Source: an uncultured Porphyromonadaceae bacterium (GTDB taxonomy: Bacteria; Bacteroidota; Bacteroidia; Bacteroidales; Muribaculaceae). Taken from it: a DNA stretch of 9,852 nucleotides. The notes under the pieces are model-generated. The model ran no database searches, was not told the DNA's origin, and saw only the letters and a list, made by a program, of their open reading frames with translations. This document shows, piece by piece, positions 264 to 9,852 of the stretch. The stretch is from assembly GCA_947174155.1 (NCBI GenBank), contig CAMWHX010000025.1, positions 1 through 9,852 on the forward strand, written 5' to 3'. A program made the translations under genes and the position numbers. Within the stretch, counting starts at the first letter, position 1; each line of letters opens with the position of its first letter.

Positions 264-295
264 TTTGCACCTTCCGATTTTTATGCTTAACTTTG
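264..295 (+). promoter_or_regulatory. Bacteroidota-type promoter of the ATPase gene
   Basis: TTTG (264-267) is followed by a 20-base spacer and TAACTTTG (288-295). This is an exact match to the Bacteroidota primary-sigma pattern TTTG-N19..21-TAnnTTTG. Transcription would start near 301-303, leaving a leader of about 13-15 bases before the ATG at 316, with no Shine-Dalgarno site. Confidence 0.8.
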
Positions 296-315: not shown

Positions 316-1659
316 ATGATCCAGAAGATCACCATATCAAATTTCTTCTCCATTCGGGAGCCTTTGGAAATCTCATTTGAGGCTTCCAAAGAGCGACGGT
401 ATAGTGAGGATTGGATAACTCAAATTGGGAACACAAAATTGCTTAAAGCCCTTATTCTTTATGGCGCTAATGGCAGCGGGAAGACCAATATACTGTGTGC
501 ACTGGATTTTTTACGAGAAGCAATTATCTCTATCCCAGTGAAAGAAGATGACGACTTCGGATATTTGCAATTCGCTCTTGACCCACAATATGCTGAAAAG
601 AATTCTATCTTTGACCTCTACTTCTTTATAGACAACATTAGATACCGATACTATATCGAAATCTCCCCAAAGCGAATTTATAAAGAGGAGTTACGTGTTT
701 ACCACAACGGTAACAATAGCAGGGCAATCTATACAAGAAAGTATAACGATGAGAAAGAGATTAATACCGTTAGGTTTGGCACTTGGTTGTCCTTATCTCC
801 CAAGGATCGCAAGACGATTGAAGATAACACAAAAGATAATGTTTCTGTATTATCAGTTTATGCTTCTAAGAACATCTCATGTAATGAGCTAAAGATTGTT
901 CGCAATTATTTTAGATATGAATTCTTTAAAGTATATTACCTTCAAGATGCCGACCAAGAAGTCGCAACTGCTTTGAAACACGATAAACAATTAAAGTTTT
1001 TGATCGTAGATTTAATCCGCACATTTCACTCCAATATTGTAGATATTAGAGTAGAGGAAGAGATTAAAACTATCCCGGAAGAAGCCCGACAGATTTTACT
1101 GCAGATGAAGCATTCCGATGAAGAACGAGAAGCTATCGAAAAGATGCACACGCTGACAAAACTCACAAGCCACTATGTTCATAAGACTCGGCTTGGAGAA
1201 TTCTCTCTCGAAGATAATTTGCAATCAGAAGGTACACGCAGCTTTATTCGACATCTTGTCCTGTTCTACCAATCTATTCAGAAAGGGTGGTTGGTGGCTC
1301 TTGATGAATTTGGTGCTGGTATGCAAGCTAAGATTCAGCATTTGCTTTTAGAGTTCTTCCTGAAATTCTCAGAACATTCTCAACTAATATTTGCCACACA
1401 ATCACTTGGAGTCCTTGACTTCCCAAAGATGAGGCGAGATGCCATAAATATTGTTTCAAAAGATGATATCGGTCAAACGCATCTTGATAGAGACACTGTT
1501 AAGGGAATTCATAAAAACATAAAGCTTCGTAAAGCATATATCGACGGTAAGTTCACGACCATAGACCCCAATGAACCTGATATCGATTTAAGCTCTGAGT
1601 ATGAAAAATATAGATCACTAATTTTTTCAGATAGAAAGGAGGCAGATGATATGATGTAA
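316..1659 (+). CDS. AAA_15/OLD-like AAA family ATPase
   Basis: A 447-residue ATP-binding protein of the SMC/ABC-like class found in AAA_15, RloA-like and OLD-like families. The N-terminus (MIQKITISNFFSI) is the usual beta-strand start of these ATPases. The Walker A motif GANGSGKT is at residues 50-57, an ABC-signature-like SEGT at 304-307, and Walker B LVALDEF at 326-332 with D330 and E331. The position where relatives usually carry the switch histidine (TTHD-like) reads ATQS, so the histidine is replaced by Q362. No TOPRIM or other nuclease domain follows: the protein ends about 85 residues after this loop, so it is ATPase only. Such proteins often power anti-phage or abortive-infection systems with a separate effector, but no known partner (RloB, PtuB, AriB) is recognisable nearby. 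It has its own promoter at 264-295 and is first in the island. The family is confident; the role is inference. Confidence 0.85.
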   Translation: MIQKITISNFFSIREPLEISFEASKERRYSEDWITQIGNTKLLKALILYGANGSGKTNILCALDFLREAIISIPVKEDDDFGYLQFALDPQYAEKNSIFDLYFFIDNIRYRYYIEISPKRIYKEELRVYHNGNNSRAIYTRKYNDEKEINTVRFGTWLSLSPKDRKTIEDNTKDNVSVLSVYASKNISCNELKIVRNYFRYEFFKVYYLQDADQEVATALKHDKQLKFLIVDLIRTFHSNIVDIRVEEEIKTIPEEARQILLQMKHSDEEREAIEKMHTLTKLTSHYVHKTRLGEFSLEDNLQSEGTRSFIRHLVLFYQSIQKGWLVALDEFGAGMQAKIQHLLLEFFLKFSEHSQLIFATQSLGVLDFPKMRRDAINIVSKDDIGQTHLDRDTVKGIHKNIKLRKAYIDGKFTTIDPNEPDIDLSSEYEKYRSLIFSDRKEADDMM

Positions 1660-1661
1660 AT

Positions 1662-1701
1662 AAAAAAACGGTGTCCTACTCTTGGCGGAGAACAGGACAC
1701 C
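1662..1701 (-). terminator. Intrinsic terminator of the sRNA candidate
   Basis: AGGACACC (1694-1701) and GGTGTCCT (1670-1677) form an 8-bp stem. An inner GAG/CTC pairing (1688-1690 with 1679-1681) lengthens it. On the minus strand it is followed by one CG-type step and then seven T (1668-1662). On the plus strand no T-run follows, so it should act on the minus strand only. Confidence 0.78.
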
Positions 1702-1746
1702 AAGGAGACTATATCCCTGTAGAACTAGGGGGATAGAGCGGATTCC
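1662..1746 (-). ncRNA. Candidate small RNA (about 85 nt), minus strand
   Basis: Read on the minus strand, this stretch has a promoter immediately upstream (1752-1783), an internal hairpin (TATCCC at 1712-1717 pairing with GGGATA at 1730-1735) and an intrinsic terminator at its end (1662-1701). It holds no open frame of note. The 5' end carries CUUGG, which could pair with CCAAG in the loop of the terminator hairpin. The promoter, compact structure and terminator together argue for a stand-alone RNA rather than a leader, because the next thing downstream is the antisense of the ATPase gene's 3' end. The start is estimated from the promoter. I cannot assign it to a known RNA family. Confidence 0.6.
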
Positions 1747-1751
1747 AAGCG

Positions 1752-1783
1752 CAAAGTTACGAAAAATATTCGTGATATGCAAT
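1752..1783 (-). promoter_or_regulatory. Promoter of the sRNA candidate
   Basis: On the minus strand, ATTG (1783-1780) is followed by 20 bases and TAACTTTG (1759-1752). The -7 element fits TAnnTTTG exactly and is the same octamer used by the ATPase promoter; the -33 element matches TTTG in three of four bases. Transcription is expected to start near 1745-1747. Confidence 0.68.
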
Positions 1784-1844
1784 CGCTACACCCCTATTTC
1801 TGCTATTTTCGCAAGTTTTCTGAGAATTCTTAAATATTCAACAG

Positions 1845-2600
1845 ATGAAGAATAACATGAAATATGGGGGGGACCCTATCCAACTTACTCTTCCGTTTGA
1901 TGACTTACAATCGGAGGATGAAATACATTTGACTCAATCAGCTGAACGAGCAAACTCGTATAATTCCATTGCATCCATTCTTGGACGTAGAGATGACACG
2001 CTATTGTTCATGACAATGGCAGTCACAATGACGTCCAAACACGAGATGCCTATTGTGCGAGCATATACCGGAAAAATTCCCAACGATATTCGAGGGATTC
2101 ATCGTGTCGTTCGCCGAGGTTTGTATAATGTTGCTCCACACTTTTACTTCGAGGATGAACGAATTTTGAGATATTGGAACAAACCGTTTGAAACGGAAAA
2201 TATTCTTTCCAACTTTCCTGTCTCTATAGGGATAGACTTTTCTATGACGAACGAAATGCTACGTCCTCAAAAGATTCACGCCTCATTCCTCAACAAACTT
2301 TGGGTTGCTTGGCTCCAATCCAGAGGTCATAAGGTGATTCCAAATATCTCTTTCCCCGATGAATGGGATGAAGACTATTGGTTAGAAGGATGGCCAAGAC
2401 ATTCTGTAATTGCGGTAAGTAGTACCGGAGTTCTAACTCATGGGAATCCGAAGGATTGGCTTAGAGGGGTCGAAAGAATTCATAATGAACTACATCCGAC
2501 TCATATTCTCCGCTATGGGCCCAAAGTCCCCGGCGAAGATGAAAAAAACTGCTTATTTTTCTCTAACGATAATATTAGATCAGCAAATGGGTGGAAATAA
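1845..2600 (+). CDS. DUF4417 domain-containing protein
   Basis: A 251-residue protein. From about residue 120 to the end it carries the features I associate with DUF4417: a GIDFSM-type segment, then NKLWVAWLQSRGHKVIPNIS with the invariant-looking W and Q, then HSVIAVSSTGV, and HILRYG near the C-terminus. DUF4417 proteins occur on phages, plasmids and integrated elements; their biochemical function is not established as far as I know. The first 50 residues are low-conservation sequence with an LTLPFDD patch. ATG at 1845 is taken as the start; an in-frame ATG at 1857 is an alternative. No convincing promoter was found just upstream, where the divergent sRNA promoter lies. The 3' end overlaps the next gene by 14 bases, so the two are probably translated in a coupled way. 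Confidence 0.75.
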   Translation: MKNNMKYGGDPIQLTLPFDDLQSEDEIHLTQSAERANSYNSIASILGRRDDTLLFMTMAVTMTSKHEMPIVRAYTGKIPNDIRGIHRVVRRGLYNVAPHFYFEDERILRYWNKPFETENILSNFPVSIGIDFSMTNEMLRPQKIHASFLNKLWVAWLQSRGHKVIPNISFPDEWDEDYWLEGWPRHSVIAVSSTGVLTHGNPKDWLRGVERIHNELHPTHILRYGPKVPGEDEKNCLFFSNDNIRSANGWK

Positions 2601-3045
2601 TACATATAAAAAAGAGCTCGGAGGGGTACCAGAACATCTCCGAACACATAATGAGTTGCCAAATCGAATTGAAGGCCATAAGATCCTTCTACAGAAAGGA
2701 AATGAAAAAAGAGTCAAGATTCCGATGAACTCAAATTCCGAATCTCCAATATATCTTGGAGCGCATCGTAAAGATGATGGAACAATTGAAATATCAACCT
2801 TTGGTATCTACGATAAGCATAAGTGCATAGGTCAAGTAGATCTTAAGTTTGATGATATGGGGAACTATATTCCCTACGCTAATAATGGAGAGAAATCATC
2901 CCATTTTCATTTGTTTACTGAAAATCCATCAAATGGATTAGTTAGCCGTAAAAGTGGTCAAAAGAATAATCATCATCCCATTGACCCCAAATATGACTCA
3001 CTTATAAGAAAAATAGTTGAATACAATAAAGCAAAACACAAATGA
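2587..3045 (+). CDS. Uncharacterised basic 152-residue protein
   Basis: I do not recognise this protein. The frame is open from 2440, but the ATG at 2587 is preferred because it overlaps the DUF4417 stop by only 14 bases; ATG at 2539 is the other candidate. The protein is lysine- and histidine-rich with a net positive charge. It opens with MGGNNTYKKELGGVPEH and has conserved-looking His patches: SSHFHLF at residues 104-110 and KNNHHP at 126-131, ahead of a C-terminal helix-like stretch ending in NKAKHK. No signal peptide or membrane segment is seen. The His clusters would suit a small nuclease or metal site, but that is only a guess. Its stop overlaps the start of the next gene (ATGA), so the two are likely made together. 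A basic protein followed by an acidic one resembles toxin/immunity pairs, which is inference from charge and overlap alone. Confidence 0.68.
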   Translation: MGGNNTYKKELGGVPEHLRTHNELPNRIEGHKILLQKGNEKRVKIPMNSNSESPIYLGAHRKDDGTIEISTFGIYDKHKCIGQVDLKFDDMGNYIPYANNGEKSSHFHLFTENPSNGLVSRKSGQKNNHHPIDPKYDSLIRKIVEYNKAKHK

Positions 3046-3485
3046 CAAACAATTCAATCACAAATATACCTAAACGTGACCACACTGTAGTTGTACCCAA
3101 TTTCTTTGGAGAGGGGAAAAACCTTGAAATGTGGCAACTTGGCTGGCAACCTGAAAACAGACGCGAGACGAGATCTTCTGTATCTAAAAAGATCTTCCAA
3201 ACATACGTGGAAGAGGGTGGGTTCAATATGATTTTCTACTACATAGAAGATGGTAACTTCTACGGTATTCATGCTGAAAACTGCCCTATTCCTGTTTTTA
3301 GATTTAGAAAAGAATCAAGAAAATACATTTATGATCAACTTGGAGATAGAGACACTCATGACTATTACAATGAAGAGGTCTTGTATATGATTCCATGTGG
3401 TGAGAGTGTTTGGGATACGGTAGAGATTGACGGTAAACATCTTGAAGAAGTTCTTCAGGATTCATATATTGTCAATATCAGCTAA
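3042..3485 (+). CDS. Uncharacterised acidic 147-residue protein
   Basis: I do not recognise this family. The ATG at 3042 shares the ATGA overlap with the preceding stop, a strong sign of a coupled start. The protein is acidic (about 24 Asp/Glu against about 15 Lys/Arg), rich in Tyr, Trp and Phe, and has no signal peptide or membrane segment. Segments such as MWQLGWQP (about residues 30-37), FNMIFYYIEDGNFYGIH and a DxHDYYNEE patch suggest a small mixed alpha/beta soluble domain. Its small size, acidity and position directly after a basic protein fit an immunity- or antitoxin-like partner, but no motif proves it. It is the last gene of the island: 37 bases of AT-rich DNA separate it from the right direct repeat. 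Confidence 0.68.
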   Translation: MTNNSITNIPKRDHTVVVPNFFGEGKNLEMWQLGWQPENRRETRSSVSKKIFQTYVEEGGFNMIFYYIEDGNFYGIHAENCPIPVFRFRKESRKYIYDQLGDRDTHDYYNEEVLYMIPCGESVWDTVEIDGKHLEEVLQDSYIVNIS

Positions 3486-3522: not shown

Positions 3523-3562
3523 CTGATAAAGGCATATCTCAGTGGAGGAGGGAGCGGAGGGC
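3523..3562. repeat. Right direct repeat over the DUF2723 gene 3' end
   Basis: This is the partner of 80-118: 28 identical bases, then a 12-base stretch with one extra G. It contains the stop codon (3539-3541, minus strand) and the last codons of the DUF2723 gene, plus 16 bases beyond the stop. To its left is the AT-rich island, to its right the GC-rich gene. A repeat that rebuilds a gene's 3' end is what tyrosine-recombinase integration into a gene end leaves behind; that reading is inference. Confidence 0.88.
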
Positions 3563-6500
3563 CCGGGCGCGGGGGGCTCCGGCGGCCATGTTGACGCTGC
3601 GGGGTGAGATGGCGCTGCGTCGCCATGTCGGCATAGCGCGCCAGTAGCGCTCCCAGGCTTCGTGGCGTGCGGTCTCCTCTTCGAGCAGGACGCGACCTGC
3701 CGCACGCTGCTTTTCGTCGCCATATTGCAGCAGCAGACGGGCCGTCTCGAGACCCGTGTAGAGCACTTCACCTCCCGTCACTACGGGGTGCATCGGCCAT
3801 ATCTCTGGGGCACAGTGATGCAAACTGAGCTCAGCCATCGAAGCGGCCTCGGCATACCGCCCCTCCCCTTCCAGGTCCAGGGCCAGGTCGAGCATCCGCT
3901 CCCGCTCGTATGCCATCATACGGGCACAGTAGGGATCGGCATACGCCTCAGGCGACATATAGTCGTCGGAGATAGCAGCGACATGACGCAGCCGCTCGTT
4001 GACACTCATCCCGTCAGCCGTCCCGACAGCTCTCAGCATTTCCCGCCACGGTGCGCCCTCCGACTGCGGGAAGAAGCATACCGACCGGGGAGACTCCTCG
4101 GTAGCATTGGTGAGTATCAGGTCTGTCATAACTATTTCGGAGAGAGTCAATCGTCCTCCCGGCGACTTCCCTAAAACCTCGCACAGGTTGACACTCTTTC
4201 CGCCGGCACGCAGAAGATAAGACGGTAGCCGCGGCACGCGTGCCGTGTCTGAATACATCATCCTCAATGCCTCCGCTGCCTCCATTTCGACAGCCGTATC
4301 CGGGAGGGTGGCAAAGGGGACCTGGCCATAGATGAAATCTTCTGAGCGCCCTGTCATGGCAGGCGAGACATGTCCCCCTTCACGCGGACGCCCCAACTGA
4401 GCGGCATACCACGGCGTGGAGAGATATGACCGGTTGACAATCACCACATCGCGTCTCACTCCACGCACATTCTGAGCATGCCACAGCGGGAAAGTGAAAT
4501 TGTCACCCTGCACCACTAAAATCGCATTTTCGGGGAGTGTCTGCAACACGTTGTCGGCCAGTGTCTCCGTCACTCTGCGTCCGGAGCGGTCATGGTCATC
4601 GTAGTTCTCCATCATCATCCACCCGGGCACCAGGATGGACAGGAGGGCCGCCACTATACGCGTCCCCCTGCTCCCGAGGCGACCGGAAGCCACTGCCGGC
4701 ACACATAGCGCTATCCCGATCCAGAAAGAGAAGACCCAGTAGGAGCCCAGGAAACTGTAATCGCGCTCACGAGGCTCACCCGGCGACTGATTGAGATAAA
4801 AGACTATCGCAAGGCCCGTCATCAGCCATAGCAACGCGCTGACACTCAACACACGCCGCCCCCGGCGACCGTAGAGACACAGGACAACACATCCCAACAA
4901 GCCGAGCAGGAAAGGGATCATGAAGTAGCGGTTATACCCTCTGTTGGCACTGCGCGCTTCGGAGGGAAGCTTATCCTGGGGTCCCAACATGGCATTATCA
5001 ATTATGGGGAAACCGGTGATGAAATTACCGTGGTCACACTCTCCGGTAGAGGGGAGGTCATTCTGGCGCCCCGAGTAGTTCCACATCAGATAACGCAGGT
5101 ACATATATCCCACCTGATACCCGAGGAAATAGCGCAGATTCTGAGTGTAGGTGGGTCGCAGTGCGACCGGGCGATGGCGCGAACCGTCTACTCCGCGCAA
5201 CCCGGCCGGATTACCGGCAGGGTCGAGAGTACGCGAAACCTCAACCGTATCCATGTTCTCCACCGTCATACCCGCCCAGGCCTCATAGGAGGGGAGATCC
5301 TCAGGAGAGCGGGAAGTGATGCGCGGCAACCACATATCCAGTTCGGGTGGATAGAGCAAGTCATAAGCCATACCCGAGGCCACATAACCGTGGCCGGCAG
5401 TGTCACTCCCGTGTCCACACCTCTCTATCAAGCCGAACGTATCGCGCACTCTCGCCCCCTCCCGACGAGGCGCGTAACGCACTCCGTCGGGTATACGCAC
5501 AAAGTCGCGATAGCGCCATAGGGTGTCGCCCGTGCTCAGCACACTCCCCTCCTCGACAAGCAACGGACGGCTGTAAGGGGTAGGACCGTGGAACAATGGA
5601 GCTGCGCCATATTGCTCCCGCGAGAGATAGGAGGCGAAGGCAAAGGGATCGGAGGGATTACCCTGATTCATCGGGGGATCAGCAAGTGCGCGTATCGGTA
5701 TAATCAGCCAGACCATATACCCGGTCAGTGTGAGGGCTCCCATCCAGGCGGCGAGTGACAGACGTCGGTAGCGACGCGTTAGCCACGGCAACGCCCAGGC
5801 CCCGGCCATTAGTAGGATAACGGAGGCACCTGCTCCGCTCAACCGCGGCAGGTGCAGGGTATTGGCGGCAAAGAGTTCGACCGCGCCCGACCACCATGAG
5901 GTCAGGGGCATCATACCTAACAGCAACACCCCGACCAACGCGCATCCGGCTATTATACCACCCCATGCGCGCCACCCGCAGGGGCGACCTCTGTTATGTC
6001 CATAGACCCATATAAGCGCCAATGCAGGTATACACAGCAAATTAAGCTGATGCACACCTATTGAGAGTCCGGTAAGATAAGCGATAAGGATCAGCCTCCG
6101 GTCGCGCGCGCGCCGCCCCGGCAGTGCAAGCCACCCTATCATAAGGCGCACACAGAGGGCGGTCAGGAAGAGTGACATGGCGTAGACCTCGGCTTCGACA
6201 GCCGAAAACCATGCCGAGTCACACCATCCGAAGGTCATGCTGCCACCCCACGATCCCAAGGCACACAGGCGCCACGACCGGGGATTACGGCGCAACAACG
6301 ACCCCCACACTATGCGGCAAACGGCCAGTATCACGCTGCACAGCAGAGCCGTGCCCAGAGCCATAAAGAGCGCCGAACAGAGGTTGATGGCGAAGGCTTC
6401 GTGACCGGGAGCCAAGGTAGCAACGACACGATGAAAGAGCATCCACATCGGATTCCCCGGTGGATGACCTATCTCCAGGCGCAGGGCCGTGGTGACATAT

Positions 6501-6613
6501 TCCGGACAGTCCCACAGCGACACCCCGTGTTCGACGGTGAGAACGTAGGTCACCAAGGATAGCACTCCGGCAGCTATGACGGCGACCCGCTGTGGCAGAA
6601 CCCCTCTCTTCAT
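3539..6613 (-). CDS. DUF2723 membrane protein, GT-C-type glycosyltransferase-like
   Basis: A 1024-residue polytopic protein of the DUF2723 family, typical of Bacteroidota and with a GT-C-like fold. The N-terminus has a first membrane helix followed by WDCPEY (residues 34-39), where Asp and Glu are the expected catalytic/metal residues, and GHPPG (49-53), a hallmark of the family. Many hydrophobic helices follow, then a large soluble C-terminal half containing VVQGDNFTFPLWHAQ at about residue 700, another family signature. Relatives are thought to act in protein or envelope glycosylation; the substrate here is unknown. ATG at 6613 is chosen over the in-frame TTG at 6619; it leaves 9 bases after the SDR stop, so the gene is probably the last of the minus-strand operon. 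The last codons and stop (TGA, 3539-3541) lie inside the right direct repeat, so the C-terminus may have been rewritten by the island's insertion. Confidence 0.85.
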   Translation of the reverse strand: MKRGVLPQRVAVIAAGVLSLVTYVLTVEHGVSLWDCPEYVTTALRLEIGHPPGNPMWMLFHRVVATLAPGHEAFAINLCSALFMALGTALLCSVILAVCRIVWGSLLRRNPRSWRLCALGSWGGSMTFGWCDSAWFSAVEAEVYAMSLFLTALCVRLMIGWLALPGRRARDRRLILIAYLTGLSIGVHQLNLLCIPALALIWVYGHNRGRPCGWRAWGGIIAGCALVGVLLLGMMPLTSWWSGAVELFAANTLHLPRLSGAGASVILLMAGAWALPWLTRRYRRLSLAAWMGALTLTGYMVWLIIPIRALADPPMNQGNPSDPFAFASYLSREQYGAAPLFHGPTPYSRPLLVEEGSVLSTGDTLWRYRDFVRIPDGVRYAPRREGARVRDTFGLIERCGHGSDTAGHGYVASGMAYDLLYPPELDMWLPRITSRSPEDLPSYEAWAGMTVENMDTVEVSRTLDPAGNPAGLRGVDGSRHRPVALRPTYTQNLRYFLGYQVGYMYLRYLMWNYSGRQNDLPSTGECDHGNFITGFPIIDNAMLGPQDKLPSEARSANRGYNRYFMIPFLLGLLGCVVLCLYGRRGRRVLSVSALLWLMTGLAIVFYLNQSPGEPRERDYSFLGSYWVFSFWIGIALCVPAVASGRLGSRGTRIVAALLSILVPGWMMMENYDDHDRSGRRVTETLADNVLQTLPENAILVVQGDNFTFPLWHAQNVRGVRRDVVIVNRSYLSTPWYAAQLGRPREGGHVSPAMTGRSEDFIYGQVPFATLPDTAVEMEAAEALRMMYSDTARVPRLPSYLLRAGGKSVNLCEVLGKSPGGRLTLSEIVMTDLILTNATEESPRSVCFFPQSEGAPWREMLRAVGTADGMSVNERLRHVAAISDDYMSPEAYADPYCARMMAYERERMLDLALDLEGEGRYAEAASMAELSLHHCAPEIWPMHPVVTGGEVLYTGLETARLLLQYGDEKQRAAGRVLLEEETARHEAWERYWRAMPTWRRSAISPRSVNMAAGAPRARALRSLLH

Positions 6614-6622
6614 CTTCAATCT

Positions 6623-7456
6623 TTAAGGACGACGTATGTCACGGTCCAGGAGGCGCCGCTTCACTTGCAGGCGCACCCAACGCGGCGAGGCCCCTACGGC
6701 CACGATGCTCAGACGGTTGAGGAAACCGTTGATATATTGATGCCGCCCGCGGAAGAGGCGACGTAATGCTCCCTCGACAAATTTATCAGGTCTGGCCACG
6801 GCCCGGAGACGCAGGGCGAGTTTCATAAGCTTGGGAGGCAATCCGAAGAGATCGGTCGCTATACCACCGGGAGTGGCGACCATCACATGCACTCCGCTGT
6901 CTTGGAGTTCGAGAGCCAGCGAGCGGCTGAACACTCGCAGGAAGGCCTTGGTCGAAGCATATAGCGCCAACCCCGGCATAGGCATCCAGCACGACATGGA
7001 GGACATATTCAATATATACCCTCTTCTGCGCGAGGCAAACCAGTCGCCGAATATGCGACATAGCTGTGCCACACTCCTGACGTGTAGATCGACAAAGAGG
7101 TCTATGCGTCGTGCAGAGGTCAGAGTGAGATAATCGAAGGAGAAGATACCGGCGTTGTTGACCAAAACCTCGACGCGATCCATCAGACCGCGGTTGTCCA
7201 GATAATCACATACTCTCTCGGGTGCGTCGGGTGCTGTCAGGTCGAGGGTGAAGCCCCAGGTCTGACAGCCATATTGCGCACTGATCCGTGCGGCTGCCTC
7301 CTGCAAGGGTTCATGGCGGTTGCTGATCATAAGCAGTGAGTATCCCCTCTTGGCAAGTCCACGACAAAACTCCATGCCGATCCCCCCGTCGGCACCTGTT
7401 ACGACAGCTACCGGTGCCGGACCCTGATGCTTATTGTCATTCTGTATCCTGCTCAT
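6623..7456 (-). CDS. Short-chain dehydrogenase/reductase (possible hydroxysteroid dehydrogenase)
   Basis: A 277-residue classical SDR. The cofactor motif TGADGGIG is at residues 20-27, NNAG at 100-103, the catalytic Ser in NMSS at 152-153 and YASTK at 166-170 (Y166, K170), followed by the usual PGG turn. An arginine at position 47, after the second strand, suggests NADP(H) preference. The C-terminus is basic and may be amphipathic (RLQVKRRLLDRDIRRP). SDRs act on many substrates. Here the gene lies downstream of a 5-alpha-reductase homologue and an OYE-type reductase, and its ATG overlaps the OYE stop (ATGA at 7453-7456), which makes a 3-hydroxysteroid dehydrogenase the best guess. Gut Bacteroidota clusters that make iso/allo bile acids combine these same three enzyme types. 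Alpha or beta stereochemistry cannot be read from sequence, and a long-chain 3-ketoacyl reductase is the main alternative. Confidence 0.85.
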   Translation of the reverse strand: MSRIQNDNKHQGPAPVAVVTGADGGIGMEFCRGLAKRGYSLLMISNRHEPLQEAAARISAQYGCQTWGFTLDLTAPDAPERVCDYLDNRGLMDRVEVLVNNAGIFSFDYLTLTSARRIDLFVDLHVRSVAQLCRIFGDWFASRRRGYILNMSSMSCWMPMPGLALYASTKAFLRVFSRSLALELQDSGVHVMVATPGGIATDLFGLPPKLMKLALRLRAVARPDKFVEGALRRLFRGRHQYINGFLNRLSIVAVGASPRWVRLQVKRRLLDRDIRRP

Positions 7457-8685
7457 CTGCGATCACGTCGTTTTATGTCTTCTATCTCCTTCCGGATACC
7501 GTGTGGAAGGTCGTCCAGATGATGATGACACGCCATCTCGCGCGAATACATACGGGCGATGCAATAATTGACGTGGTCACAGCCGCAGCGGTGTTCCGAC
7601 TCACTGCGGATACGGTTGACGAAATCCGGCTCGTTGAGCAGCGCACGTCCCATCTGCACAAACTCGAATCCCTCGTCGTCAATAACCGTGCGTGCCCCCT
7701 TCCCGTCAATGACACCTCCGACATAGACAAGGGGCATCTTGAGCGCCTGACGAAAACGACGTGCATCCTCCAGGAAATAGAGGGGGCGGAAGGGCTCCTT
7801 GCGTATCATCATCCCTCCAAACATCCTCACGCCATATTTCAGCCACCACTGCTTCATGTAGTGGGTCATGGTGTAGATCGGCATCTCGCCGCGCATGACA
7901 TACATCGGCGCCTTGCTGACGAATCCTCCCGAGAGTACGAGCGCATGCACGTCGTGCCCTTCTATGGCCCGTGCCACCTCCAGACACTCCTCCAATCCGA
8001 GTCCCCCCTTGAAGCCGTCGCGCATATTGGTTTTGACCAGTACGCCCATGTCGCTCCCGGCAGCGGTCATCACCTCGTCGAGACACTCATGCATGAAGCG
8101 CATGCGGTCGCGGAGCGTTCCGCCGTAGGAGTCTCGGCGCCGGTTGGTATAGGGAGAGAGGAACTGAGAAATGAGATAGCCGTGGCCCGCATGGACCTCC
8201 ACACAGTCAAACCCTGCCTGGCGCGCCACACGTACAGCCTCACCGAAATCCCGGGCCAGAGTCTTGAGTTCATCGGGGCGGAGTCCGCGCACGATGGTAG
8301 GGGAATACAGGTTGAAACCTGTAGAGGCGCCGACGGGAATCCCGCCGGCAGTCCGGATATGTGTCATGTTGCCGCAGTGCCCTATCTGGATAGAAGCCTT
8401 GGCACCACGGCGATGTATTCCGTCGGTGATGGCGCGCAGCTGAGGCACGATCTCGGGACGCAACCACAGCTGGGTGTCAAATGACAGCGCGGAGCGGCAT
8501 ATGCCGGCATAGGCCAGCGTGGTCATGCCCACTCCACCCTCGGCTACACTCCAATGATAATCGCGGAGCATGTCGGTAGGGCCGTTATCGCGTCCCATCC
8601 CCTCGAAAGCGGCGGAGCGGATGGTGCGGTTGGGGAGTGTGACGGGGCCTATACGCCCCGGAGTGAAAAGTCTTGTATCTGACAT
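7453..8685 (-). CDS. NADH:flavin oxidoreductase, Old Yellow Enzyme family (possible ketosteroid 5-beta-reductase)
   Basis: A 410-residue FMN-dependent TIM-barrel ene-reductase. It opens with LFTPGRIGPVTLPNRTIRS, the standard OYE start. QIGHCG at 100-105 and HAGHGYL at 165-171, followed by SQFLSPYTNRRRDSYGG, form the active-site and FMN region; VKTN (217-220), GGVIDG (323-328) and MGR (345-347) complete the barrel. The tail has Cys at 367, 369, 375 and 386, and where I recall relatives reading CDHCNYC this one reads CDHVNYC, so an iron-sulfur cluster is uncertain. The C-terminal FAD/NAD module of BaiCD and 2,4-dienoyl-CoA reductases is absent. ATG at 8685 is used; a longer frame from 8751 would overlap the upstream gene by 53 bases and adds nothing conserved. 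Between a 5-alpha-reductase homologue (13-base gap) and an SDR (4-base overlap), a delta4-3-ketosteroid reductase is likely but not proven. Confidence 0.85.
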   Translation of the reverse strand: MSDTRLFTPGRIGPVTLPNRTIRSAAFEGMGRDNGPTDMLRDYHWSVAEGGVGMTTLAYAGICRSALSFDTQLWLRPEIVPQLRAITDGIHRRGAKASIQIGHCGNMTHIRTAGGIPVGASTGFNLYSPTIVRGLRPDELKTLARDFGEAVRVARQAGFDCVEVHAGHGYLISQFLSPYTNRRRDSYGGTLRDRMRFMHECLDEVMTAAGSDMGVLVKTNMRDGFKGGLGLEECLEVARAIEGHDVHALVLSGGFVSKAPMYVMRGEMPIYTMTHYMKQWWLKYGVRMFGGMMIRKEPFRPLYFLEDARRFRQALKMPLVYVGGVIDGKGARTVIDDEGFEFVQMGRALLNEPDFVNRIRSESEHRCGCDHVNYCIARMYSREMACHHHLDDLPHGIRKEIEDIKRRDRR

Positions 8686-8698
8686 GGCAGAGAGGGAT

Positions 8699-9475
8699 TC
8701 AGTAGATGAAAGGGATGATATACCGGCGCCGCAGTGTGGTGTATTCCTCACCGAACTCCGATATATAGCGGCGGTGGAGCGACCGGGCGCGTGGCGCTAA
8801 GTTGGCGAAGGTCCAGAGGGCGAAAACCCACCCTCCGAGCGACCAGGTGAGCAGCGCGTAGCCACACCACTCGATAAACTCTCCCAGATAGTTGGCGCTG
8901 GTGACATAGCGATACATCCCCCCTCGCGGTATGTAGTGACCCGTGTCGCCGGGGCGCCGCAGGTGGCGTATGATATGGTCTGAGTGAAGATTAATACCCA
9001 TCCCGGCAAAGAACACCACGGTCCCGGCGATGAAGCAGGGGGAATAAAGCCACGACACGGGGTAGGTGTCGGCAGGAGATACGTAGAACAGCCACCCTCC
9101 GATCATATAGGCATTGACGAGATTGAAGGTAACACCCATGGCGATGATGGAGATGGGCATCCTCCCCCTCCCCTTGATCAGAAGAGGGAAGATGAATGAT
9201 CTTTGGAAATAGTGCAGCAGGAAGAGACACGCCATGACCACGAGGGGAGGCTCGCCGCTACGCTCCGAACACAGCCACAACGCAAGCATGGCAAAAAACA
9301 CCGGGCACTCCATCAGCACCCACCCGAGACGATTGGGCACCGTCGGACCCCAGGCACGTGTATAGGCCACACCATATCCGGCAGTGACAAACTGCAGTGA
9401 TATGAAGACCACCACCGCAAGCGCCGCCATCGTCCACACGACGCCATAGTATGTATCAACGGAAAACAAGTCCAT
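8699..9475 (-). CDS. Steroid 5-alpha-reductase family protein (3-oxo-5-alpha-steroid 4-dehydrogenase)
   Basis: A 258-residue integral membrane protein, nearly the same length as human SRD5A2 (254), with about seven hydrophobic segments. It follows SRD5A2 through its hallmarks: MECP at 55-58 (E56 matching human E57), HYFQRSFIF at 88-96 (Y89 matching Y91), GMGINLHSDHIIR at 158-170, then SANYLGEFIEWCGYAL at 193-208 (N195 and E199 matching N193 and E197) and a terminal IIPFIY. The Glu/Tyr pair that holds the steroid 3-keto group is therefore present, while the Gln before the Glu is Met (M55). The family reduces the delta4 double bond of 3-oxo-delta4 steroids with NADPH to give 5-alpha (allo) products. 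It is the first gene of the minus-strand operon, with a candidate -7 element at 9518-9525. The family is very secure by eye; whether the substrate is bile acid, steroid hormone or another enone is unknown. Confidence 0.92.
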   Translation of the reverse strand: MDLFSVDTYYGVVWTMAALAVVVFISLQFVTAGYGVAYTRAWGPTVPNRLGWVLMECPVFFAMLALWLCSERSGEPPLVVMACLFLLHYFQRSFIFPLLIKGRGRMPISIIAMGVTFNLVNAYMIGGWLFYVSPADTYPVSWLYSPCFIAGTVVFFAGMGINLHSDHIIRHLRRPGDTGHYIPRGGMYRYVTSANYLGEFIEWCGYALLTWSLGGWVFALWTFANLAPRARSLHRRYISEFGEEYTTLRRRYIIPFIY

Positions 9476-9517: not shown

Positions 9518-9525
9518 CAAAAATA
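9518..9525 (-). promoter_or_regulatory. Candidate -7 element of the reductase operon
   Basis: TATTTTTG on the minus strand fits TAnnTTTG and lies about 43 bases upstream of the 5-alpha-reductase ATG. No TTTG-like -33 box is found at the expected 19-21 base spacing, so the call is tentative. An AAAGGAG run (9505-9499) is about 22 bases from the ATG, too far to act as a normal ribosome binding site. Confidence 0.45.
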
Positions 9526-9693: not shown

Positions 9694-9723
9694 TTTGGGA
9701 TTGGGATTTTTTTATTACCTTTG
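9694..9723 (+). promoter_or_regulatory. Promoter of the AAA-ATPase-like gene
   Basis: TTTG (9694-9697), an 18-base spacer and TACCTTTG (9716-9723) fit the Bacteroidota promoter pattern, with the spacer one base shorter than usual. The ATG lies only 5 bases after the -7 element, so transcription would begin at or very near the start codon. Confidence 0.65.
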
Positions 9724-9727
9724 CGGC

Positions 9728-9852
9728 ATGAGCACGCAGAAATTACCGATCGGGATTCAGACTTTCTCCAAAATCATTTCGGAGGGATATGTTTATGTGG
9801 ATAAGACAGCATATCTTATACCACTTGTCAGGGATGGTGGATACTATTTCCT
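9728..9852 (+). CDS. AAA-ATPase-like / PD-(D/E)XK family protein, N-terminal fragment
   Basis: The first 41 codons of a gene that runs off the window. KLPIGIQTFSKIISEGYVYVDKTAYL is the characteristic opening of the AAA-ATPase-like proteins (Pfam AAA-ATPase_like, usually with a C-terminal PD-(D/E)XK nuclease-like domain, DUF1703). The segment just reached, GGYYF, normally leads into the Walker A region (SRPRRFGKS-type), which lies beyond the end. Members occur in many copies per genome in Bacteroidales; their function is not well established, though a nuclease-type role is often proposed. ATG at 9728 is chosen because family members begin a few residues before the KLPIGIQ motif. The gene is divergent from the reductase operon and shares the intergenic region 9476-9727 with it. 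Confidence 0.82.
   Translation, partial: MSTQKLPIGIQTFSKIISEGYVYVDKTAYLIPLVRDGGYYF

What the first reader, a model, noticed from the sequence alone, without database searches (positions are those of the whole stretch)
6623..9475. Compact operon of 5-alpha-reductase, OYE-type reductase and SDR: likely bile-acid or steroid reduction
An SRD5A homologue with strong human-like motifs, an OYE-family reductase and a classical SDR are packed with 13-nt and 4-nt-overlap junctions. From the literature as I recall it, gut Bacteroidota that convert 3-oxo-delta4-lithocholic acid to isoallolithocholic acid carry clusters of just these three enzyme types (5AR, 5BR, 3-beta-HSDH). The predicted net activity is saturation of the delta4 bond in either stereochemistry plus reduction or oxidation at C3, affecting host-active bile acids or hormones.
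Basis: partly seen in the sequence, partly recalled or inferred. Interest (0 to 1): 0.75.

Follow-up and report, generated by a model that had tools for sequence, protein, structure and literature searches.

The report
Gut-bacterial steroid ring-flattening gene cluster

Summary
The three genes are real: 5-alpha-reductase (SRD5A, 9475-8699), Old Yellow Enzyme (OYE, 8685-7453) and short-chain dehydrogenase (SDR, 7456-6623), minus strand, 13-nt gap and 4-nt overlap; a TMEM260-like gene follows 3-9 nt on. Of 72 related loci with enough flank, 66 hold SRD5A-OYE-SDR1 in this order; 0 of 28 distant SRD5A loci have the OYE in the held flank. The full module has a second, different SDR: SRD5A-OYE-SDR1-SDR2.

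The window's SDR is SDR1; SDR2 is missing from its usual place. In 78 genomes of the Parabacteroides family, SRD5A and SDR2 occur in exactly the same 14; P. distasonis has OYE-SDR1 with no SRD5A beside it. Reviews say P. merdae makes isoalloLCA and needs its 5AR for allo products, and P. distasonis makes 5-beta products.

So 5-alpha-reductase and 5-beta-reductase/delta4-dehydrogenase roles are well supported by comparison. The 3-beta-HSDH role fits SDR2 better than the window's SDR1, which I take as a 3-alpha-HSDH (about 2:1). Predicted output: 3-oxo-allo and allo (3-alpha) acids, not necessarily isoallo. No activity is shown.

The parts
8699..9475 (-). SRD5A: membrane steroid 5-alpha-reductase homologue, 258 aa (of the class linked to OYE/SDR)
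   Evidence: PF02544 1.1e-44; PDB 7c83 7.7e-54 and human SRD5A2 7bw1 2e-43; Glu56 (codon 9310-9308) and Tyr89 (codon 9211-9209) align with human E57/Y91 and are invariant in the 178 of 178 sequences kept
7453..8685 (-). OYE: FMN ene-reductase, probable 3-oxo-delta4 5-beta-reductase / 5-beta-steroid delta4-dehydrogenase, 410 aa
   Evidence: PF00724 8.7e-50; two NCBIfam models tie as best, BaiCD (173.4 bits, cut-off 825) and mycofactocin OYE 2 (173.7 bits, cut-off 793), both far under their cut-offs and matched mainly in their N-terminal part; H165/H168/Y170 and C369/H371/C375/C386 at least 98% conserved in 146 sequences
6623..7456 (-). SDR1: classical short-chain dehydrogenase, likely 3-hydroxysteroid dehydrogenase (3-alpha favoured), 277 aa
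   Evidence: PF00106 5.8e-39; Ser153/Tyr166/Lys170 in 122 of 122 SDR1 sequences kept; AlphaFold model pLDDT 90.9; top structural rows include bile-acid 7-beta-HSDH 5fyd/5gt9, tied with other SDRs
3539..6613 (-). TMEM260-like (PF11028) gene, probably co-transcribed; no evident role in steroid chemistry
   Evidence: PF11028 9e-45; start ATG 6613 or TTG 6619, 3-9 nt after the SDR1 stop; follows the module on the same strand in 17 of 80 related loci, in 2 of them (L044, L045) with SDR2 between
9518..9525 (-). TATTTTTG, a lone match to the Bacteroidales -7 box (TAnnTTTG, motif recalled) 43-50 nt before the SRD5A start; weak promoter candidate
   Evidence: no TTTG at the right spacing upstream of it

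Best explanation
The genes form one transcription unit for redox inversion of the steroid A/B ring junction. SDR1 oxidises a 3-hydroxy-5-beta bile acid (or other steroid) to the 3-oxo form; the OYE interconverts 3-oxo-5-beta and 3-oxo-delta4; SRD5A reduces the delta4 bond with NADPH from the alpha face to 3-oxo-5-alpha ('flat', allo); SDR1 can then reduce C3 again. SDR1 is more likely a 3-alpha- than a 3-beta-HSDH, so the unit would turn bent 3-alpha,5-beta acids (LCA, DCA) into 3-oxo-allo and allo (3-alpha,5-alpha) acids rather than into isoalloLCA, unless a 3-beta-HSDH lies elsewhere in the genome. Shown: gene identity, catalytic residues, conserved synteny, SDR1/SDR2 distribution. Inferred: co-transcription, reaction directions, C3 stereochemistry, substrates.
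For: SRD5A: family and catalytic residues. Conserved linkage: SRD5A-OYE-SDR1 in 66 of 72 named loci with enough flank; SDR1 (E<=1e-45) in 39 of 39 SRD5A+ genomes and 1 of 80 others in the Muribaculaceae sample. OYE as 5-beta enzyme: P. distasonis L155 has OYE-SDR1 and no SRD5A beside it and is reported to make 3-oxoLCA from 3-oxo-delta4-LCA and to interconvert LCA/3-oxoLCA/isoLCA (PMC11647740 passages). SDR2 as the 3-beta enzyme: SRD5A and SDR2 in the same 14 of 78 genomes of the Parabacteroides family, adjacent or one gene apart in all 14; P. merdae makes isoalloLCA and its 5AR disruption stops allo products (PMC10382948 passage). A review table lists 3-alpha-HSD for P. distasonis and 3-beta-HSD for P. 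merdae and Odoribacter, and lists Alistipes under 5AR but not under 3-beta-HSD; the one Alistipes-titled locus here (L075) has SRD5A-OYE-SDR1 and no SDR2-like hit in its genome, G004, at E<=1e-25.
Against: P. distasonis is also credited with 3-beta-HSDH (isoLCA), so SDR1 could be 3-beta or unspecific. SRD5A/SDR1 avoidance there is not significant (1 of 14 against 7 of 64, Fisher p = 1.0). SDR1 always accompanies SRD5A in the Muribaculaceae sample, which a 5-alpha-side 3-beta-HSDH would also do. At E<=1e-25 SDR2-like hits also occur in 8 of 80 SRD5A-free Muribaculaceae genomes. Related genomes are not independent data. Bacteroides dorei is given as an isoalloLCA maker in one review but appears only under 5AR in the other's table.
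Confidence: 0.55

Rival explanations
1. One reading: SDR1 is the 3-beta-HSDH and the window makes isoalloLCA (3-beta,5-alpha) from 3-oxo-delta4-LCA or 3-oxoLCA.
For: SDR1 follows SRD5A-OYE in 66 of 72 loci and 39 of 39 SRD5A+ genomes of the Muribaculaceae sample hold an SDR1; P. distasonis, which has SDR1 and not SDR2 beside its OYE, is credited with isoLCA formation; secondary sources describe the enzyme set as 5AR, 5BR, 3-beta-HSDH.
Against: In the Parabacteroides family, to which P. merdae belongs and in which that cluster was tested, the SDR tied to 5AR is SDR2, from another subfamily, and SDR1 (E<=1e-50) is absent from 13 of the 14 SRD5A+ genomes.
Confidence: 0.27
2. Same chemistry, but the natural substrates are steroid hormones or dietary sterol derivatives rather than bile acids.
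For: The catalytic residues shared with human SRD5A2 act on testosterone there. The OYE carries neither the residue pair that PMC12238238 (passages) ties to clostridial hormone 5-beta-reductases (Asn/Ser) nor that of BaiCD (Tyr or Ser/Glu): counted from the catalytic Tyr170, the window has Gly169 and Gln174.
Against: Reviews report bile-acid activity for Bacteroidota 5AR strains, with a P. merdae 5AR disruption; bile acids are far more abundant in the gut (general knowledge).
Confidence: 0.13
3. The enzymes act on an endogenous lipid or isoprenoid, perhaps with the TMEM260-like gene in envelope biogenesis; host steroids are incidental.
For: TMEM260-like gene 3-9 nt downstream, and after the module in 17 of 80 loci; 28 distant SRD5A loci have no OYE in the held flank, so SRD5A has other contexts in the phylum.
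Against: The OYE/SDR linkage is confined to the closer SRD5A class; a TMEM260-like gene was not seen downstream in 63 of 80 loci (some cut short) and looks like the next gene left after loss of SDR2 (L044, L045 keep both).
Confidence: 0.05

Closest known systems
Bacteroidota 5AR / 5BR / 3-beta-HSDH cluster (P. merdae, Odoribacter, B. dorei; Sato 2021 and Li 2021, known here only through secondary sources)
   Same: SRD5A-type 5AR next to a BaiCD-like NADH:flavin oxidoreductase and an SDR (as told); in 11 of 14 unnamed Parabacteroides-family genomes the order SRD5A-OYE-SDR is the same.
   Different: The Parabacteroides-family clusters with 5AR have SDR2; the window has SDR1, no SDR2 in place, and a TMEM260-like gene instead.
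P. distasonis OYE-SDR pair (WP_005861966 / WP_009276610, L155)
   Same: OYE 61.5% and SDR1 40% identical to the window, adjacent and in the same order.
   Different: No SRD5A beside it; preceded by efflux genes; products reported in the passage read are 5-beta.
BaiCD / clostridial 3-oxo-delta4 5-beta-reductases (and E. [quoted passage not shown]
   Different: 410 aa against profile lengths of about 640: no C-terminal FAD/NAD domain; three invariant Cys and one His instead of the four-Cys motif (the latter recalled); BaiCD model 173.4 bits against a cut-off of 825.
Human SRD5A2 / bacterial PbSRD5A (7bw1, 7c83)
   Same: Family, length, catalytic Glu and Tyr.
   Different: In an operon with a 5-beta-type reductase and an SDR.

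Membership tests
Steroid 5-alpha-reductase (SRD5A) | PF02544 domain above cut-off | tested here: met
   152.5 bits against 22.6
Steroid 5-alpha-reductase (SRD5A) | Catalytic Glu and Tyr (human E57, Y91) | tested here: met
   Glu56, Tyr89; invariant in 178 of 178 sequences kept
Steroid 5-alpha-reductase (SRD5A) | Reduces 3-oxo-delta4 steroids to 5-alpha products | not testable with these tools
   needs expression and LC-MS
BaiCD (NF041087) | Score above the curated cut-off; full length with FAD/NAD domain | tested here: not met
   173.4 bits against 825; 410 aa, best stretch matches profile 3-261 of 642
FMN ene-reductase (OYE superfamily) | PF00724 and catalytic His/His/Tyr | tested here: met
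   170.3 bits against 27; H165, H168, Y170
Clostridial hormone 5-beta-reductase clade (PMC12238238) | Asn before and Ser four after the catalytic Tyr | tested here: not met
   Gly169 and Gln174 in the window, counted from Tyr170
Bacteroidota 5AR/5BR/3-beta-HSDH cluster | 5AR and flavin oxidoreductase adjacent on one strand | tested here: met
Bacteroidota 5AR/5BR/3-beta-HSDH cluster | The SDR of the type that accompanies 5AR in Parabacteroides-family genomes (SDR2) | tested here: not met
   Window SDR is SDR1; no SDR2 within the window; elsewhere in its genome not testable, no genome held
Bacteroidota 5AR/5BR/3-beta-HSDH cluster | Makes isoalloLCA from 3-oxo-delta4-LCA | not testable with these tools
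   needs culture or expression
Classical SDR | GxxxGxG cofactor motif, Ser/Tyr/Lys | tested here: met
   G21, G25, G27, S153, Y166, K170, each at least 97% in 122 sequences

The most novel reading that the evidence does not exclude
The ancestral gut-Bacteroidales unit is a four-gene, two-dehydrogenase module that carries a bile acid from 3-alpha,5-beta to 3-beta,5-alpha within one cell (SDR1 = 3-alpha-HSDH on the 5-beta side, SDR2 = 3-beta-HSDH on the 5-alpha side). Lineages then trimmed it in stereochemically sensible ways: P. distasonis kept the 5-beta/SDR1 half, P. merdae-like species dropped SDR1 and kept 5AR with SDR2, and the window's lineage lost SDR2, so it would make allo instead of isoallo acids. 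Which SDR remains would then predict each species' bile-acid product.
Probability: 0.4. Interest if true: 0.62.

Novelty: new variant of a known kind. Interest (0 to 1): 0.42.

Why it matters
IsoalloLCA acts on regulatory T cells (reviews, passages). If SDR1 and SDR2 fix the C3 outcome, product class could be predicted from genomes across Muribaculaceae, Rikenellaceae, Barnesiella and Parabacteroides, and Muribaculaceae (abundant in mice, general knowledge) would join the bacteria that flatten bile acids. It also warns against calling every SDR next to a 5AR a 3-beta-HSDH.

Tried and rejected
Own genome: none held, so whether an SDR2 lies elsewhere in the window's genome is unknown. As a substitute, 8 of 39 SRD5A+ genomes of the Muribaculaceae sample had no SDR2-like hit at E<=1e-25; at that threshold 8 of 80 SRD5A-free genomes also had a hit, so some hits are other SDRs.

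Mutual avoidance of SRD5A and SDR1 in the Parabacteroides family: rejected as a statistical claim (p = 1.0); kept only as an architectural observation.

Operon on mobile DNA: of 72,556 plasmid records, 2 hold an SRD5A-like match at E<=1e-5, one from Bacteroidota; the two Bacteroidota 'plasmid' records met here carry housekeeping genes and look like chromosome pieces. No RNA family at gathering threshold, no tRNA, no full Bacteroidales promoter pattern before SRD5A; the sigma-70 and terminator scan was near chance.

Primary papers (Sato 2021, Li 2021) are not held; all statements about them come from secondary passages. I saw no title or abstract start describing two SDR types in this cluster among the listings, and read only passages of eleven papers; that is no proof that it is unpublished.
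Full report
WHAT IS THERE. On the minus strand lie SRD5A (9475-8699), OYE (8685-7453), SDR (7456-6623) and a TMEM260-like gene (6613 or 6619 to 3539), with junctions of 13 nt, a 4-nt overlap and 3-9 nt. GC is about 54-63% across them and 35-42% in the 500-base windows of the first 3.5 kb. Muribaculaceae is therefore likely, not proven.

IDENTITY. SRD5A matches solved 5-alpha-reductases. Its Glu56 and Tyr89 align with human E57 and Y91, where PMC7591894 (passages) reports that E57Q compromises and Y91F essentially abolishes activity; both are invariant in 178 of 178 sequences kept (151 close, 27 distant; cut, odd-length and duplicate frames were dropped first). The OYE has the His/His/Tyr site, no FAD/NAD domain and a conserved C-terminal Cys/His motif. 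By NCBIfam, BaiCD (173.4 bits) and a mycofactocin-system OYE (173.7 bits) tie as best, both far below their cut-offs. Its model (pLDDT 86.8; the loop at 375-381 is under 50) scores highest with Fe-S flavoenzymes such as 2-naphthoyl-CoA reductase, with plain OYEs close behind. The SDR is a classical SDR with Ser/Tyr/Lys.

CONSERVATION. Of these 80, 72 have at least 3.7 kb downstream: 66 hold SRD5A-OYE-SDR1 in order, 1 has SDR1 upstream of SRD5A, 1 lacks SDR1 and 4 hold SRD5A alone. A survey of 295 genomes of the order gave 71 with a match at E<=1e-3: one class at about 50% identity and more, one at 35-45%, and a tail of weak hits. A survey of 296 genomes of the phylum gave 12, of which 4 were strong, the centre genome included. 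None of 28 distant SRD5A loci has the OYE in its held flank (3 of them have only 1.5 kb flanks and others end at contig ends). Seven loci at about 50% identity also lack it (L139-L141, L144-L146, L181).

TWO SDRs. Comparison with a Phocaeicola massiliensis record (L154) and a P. distasonis record (L155) showed that the third gene is of two kinds. SDR1 is the window's kind; SDR2 is an SDR of another subfamily (one named relative is called retinol dehydrogenase-12); the profile alignment gives 22% identity. The complete form is SRD5A-OYE-SDR1-SDR2, as in Barnesiella sp. An22 (L069). Among the 72 named loci 30 have SDR2, and 17 of all 80 have a TMEM260-like gene after the module; in 2 of these 17 SDR2 lies in between, so the window's layout looks like loss of SDR2. 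In 20 fetched loci of the 39 found in the Muribaculaceae sample (family of G003, whose locus L030 is so titled): 13 with SDR1+SDR2, 5 with SDR1 only, 2 with SRD5A alone. In 20 fetched loci of the 53 found in the Rikenellaceae sample (family of G004, the genome of the Alistipes-titled L075): 10 SRD5A-OYE-SDR1, 6 with SDR1+SDR2, 2 SRD5A-OYE (one cut by a contig end), 1 SRD5A-SDR2, 1 SRD5A alone. Some of these loci are the same as in the named set.

CO-OCCURRENCE. In 78 genomes of the family of G111 (placed by its nearest named proteins, mostly Parabacteroides; hence taken as Tannerellaceae), SRD5A (strong matches) and SDR2 (E<=1e-45) occur in the same 14 (Fisher p about 1e-15; one further genome, G598, had only a weak SRD5A match of 1.9e-7 and was left out). 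11 of the 14 have SRD5A-OYE-SDR2 and 3 have SRD5A-SDR2 without the OYE; one (G599) has a split SRD5A frame and stops in SDR2. SDR1 (E<=1e-50) occurs in 8, of which 7 have OYE-SDR1 and no SRD5A; the eighth (G630) has a 40% copy on another contig. In 119 genomes of the Muribaculaceae sample, SRD5A occurs in 39; SDR1 in all 39 and 1 other; an SDR2-like hit (E<=1e-25) in 31 of the 39 and 8 of the other 80. In 101 genomes of the Rikenellaceae sample, SRD5A in 53; an SDR2-like hit in 20 of the 53 and 1 of 48. Relatedness makes these p-values too small.

MECHANISM. From secondary passages: P. merdae, Odoribacter laneus and B. dorei turn 3-oxo-delta4-LCA into isoalloLCA, 20 other Bacteroidota strains turn it into 3-oxo-alloLCA, and P. 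merdae 5AR disruption stops allo products; the 5AR is clustered with a predicted 3-beta-HSDH and a flavin oxidoreductase (PMC10382948). P. distasonis makes 3-oxoLCA from 3-oxo-delta4-LCA and interconverts LCA, 3-oxoLCA and isoLCA (PMC11647740). A review table lists 3-alpha-HSD for P. distasonis, 3-beta-HSD for P. merdae and Odoribacter among others, and Alistipes under 5AR but not 3-beta-HSD (PMC12789469). Combined with the gene distribution: OYE = 5-beta-reductase running both ways, SDR2 = 3-beta-HSDH, and SDR1 = a 3-HSDH of the 5-beta side, more likely 3-alpha. The weak point is that P. distasonis is also credited with 3-beta-HSDH activity. The substrate class is open: the OYE has neither the hormone-clade nor the BaiCD residue pair of PMC12238238 (passages).

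VERDICT. A genuine, widely conserved and already recognised kind of cluster, in a variant that lacks the SDR found beside 5AR in the Parabacteroides family.

Noticed in passing
window 316-3485, plus strand: Low-GC island (35-42% against 54-63%) with an AAA ATPase matching the PADLOC model AbiLi (1.7e-51) and Pfam AAA_21, then a DUF4417 protein (matches phage PHROG 8680) and two ORFs without family matches: a possible acquired defence island.
   Followed up: partly
window 264-295 and 9694-9723, plus strand: Two full matches to the Bacteroidales promoter pattern TTTG-N18-23-TAnnTTTG (0.1 expected by chance; motif recalled), before the ATPase gene and before the open frame at the right end, but none before SRD5A.
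   Followed up: no
window 9728-9852, plus strand: Start of an open reading frame cut by the window end; from memory it resembles the common Bacteroidales AAA-ATPase/PD-(D/E)XK family (no search made).
   Followed up: no
window 7528-7581 (OYE residues 369-386): Cys369, His371, Cys375 and Cys386 are 98-100% conserved in 146 OYEs that lack the FAD/NAD domain of BaiCD-type enzymes: a possible Fe-S site with no evident electron donor.
   Followed up: partly
L154 (OY726067.1) and L155 (NZ_OY725754.1): Both are labelled plasmids but carry frames that read like aconitase, isocitrate dehydrogenase and citrate synthase (my reading of the translations), or annotated ribosomal protein L25 and pth; they look like chromosome pieces.
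   Followed up: no
L041 (JAMPAQ010000001.1): Contig titled Pseudoflavonifractor sp. holds a complete Bacteroidales SRD5A-OYE-SDR1-SDR2 module; the name is probably wrong.
   Followed up: no
   Followed up: no
Only G872's SRD5A flank was read (L285: no OYE or SDR beside it).
   Followed up: partly
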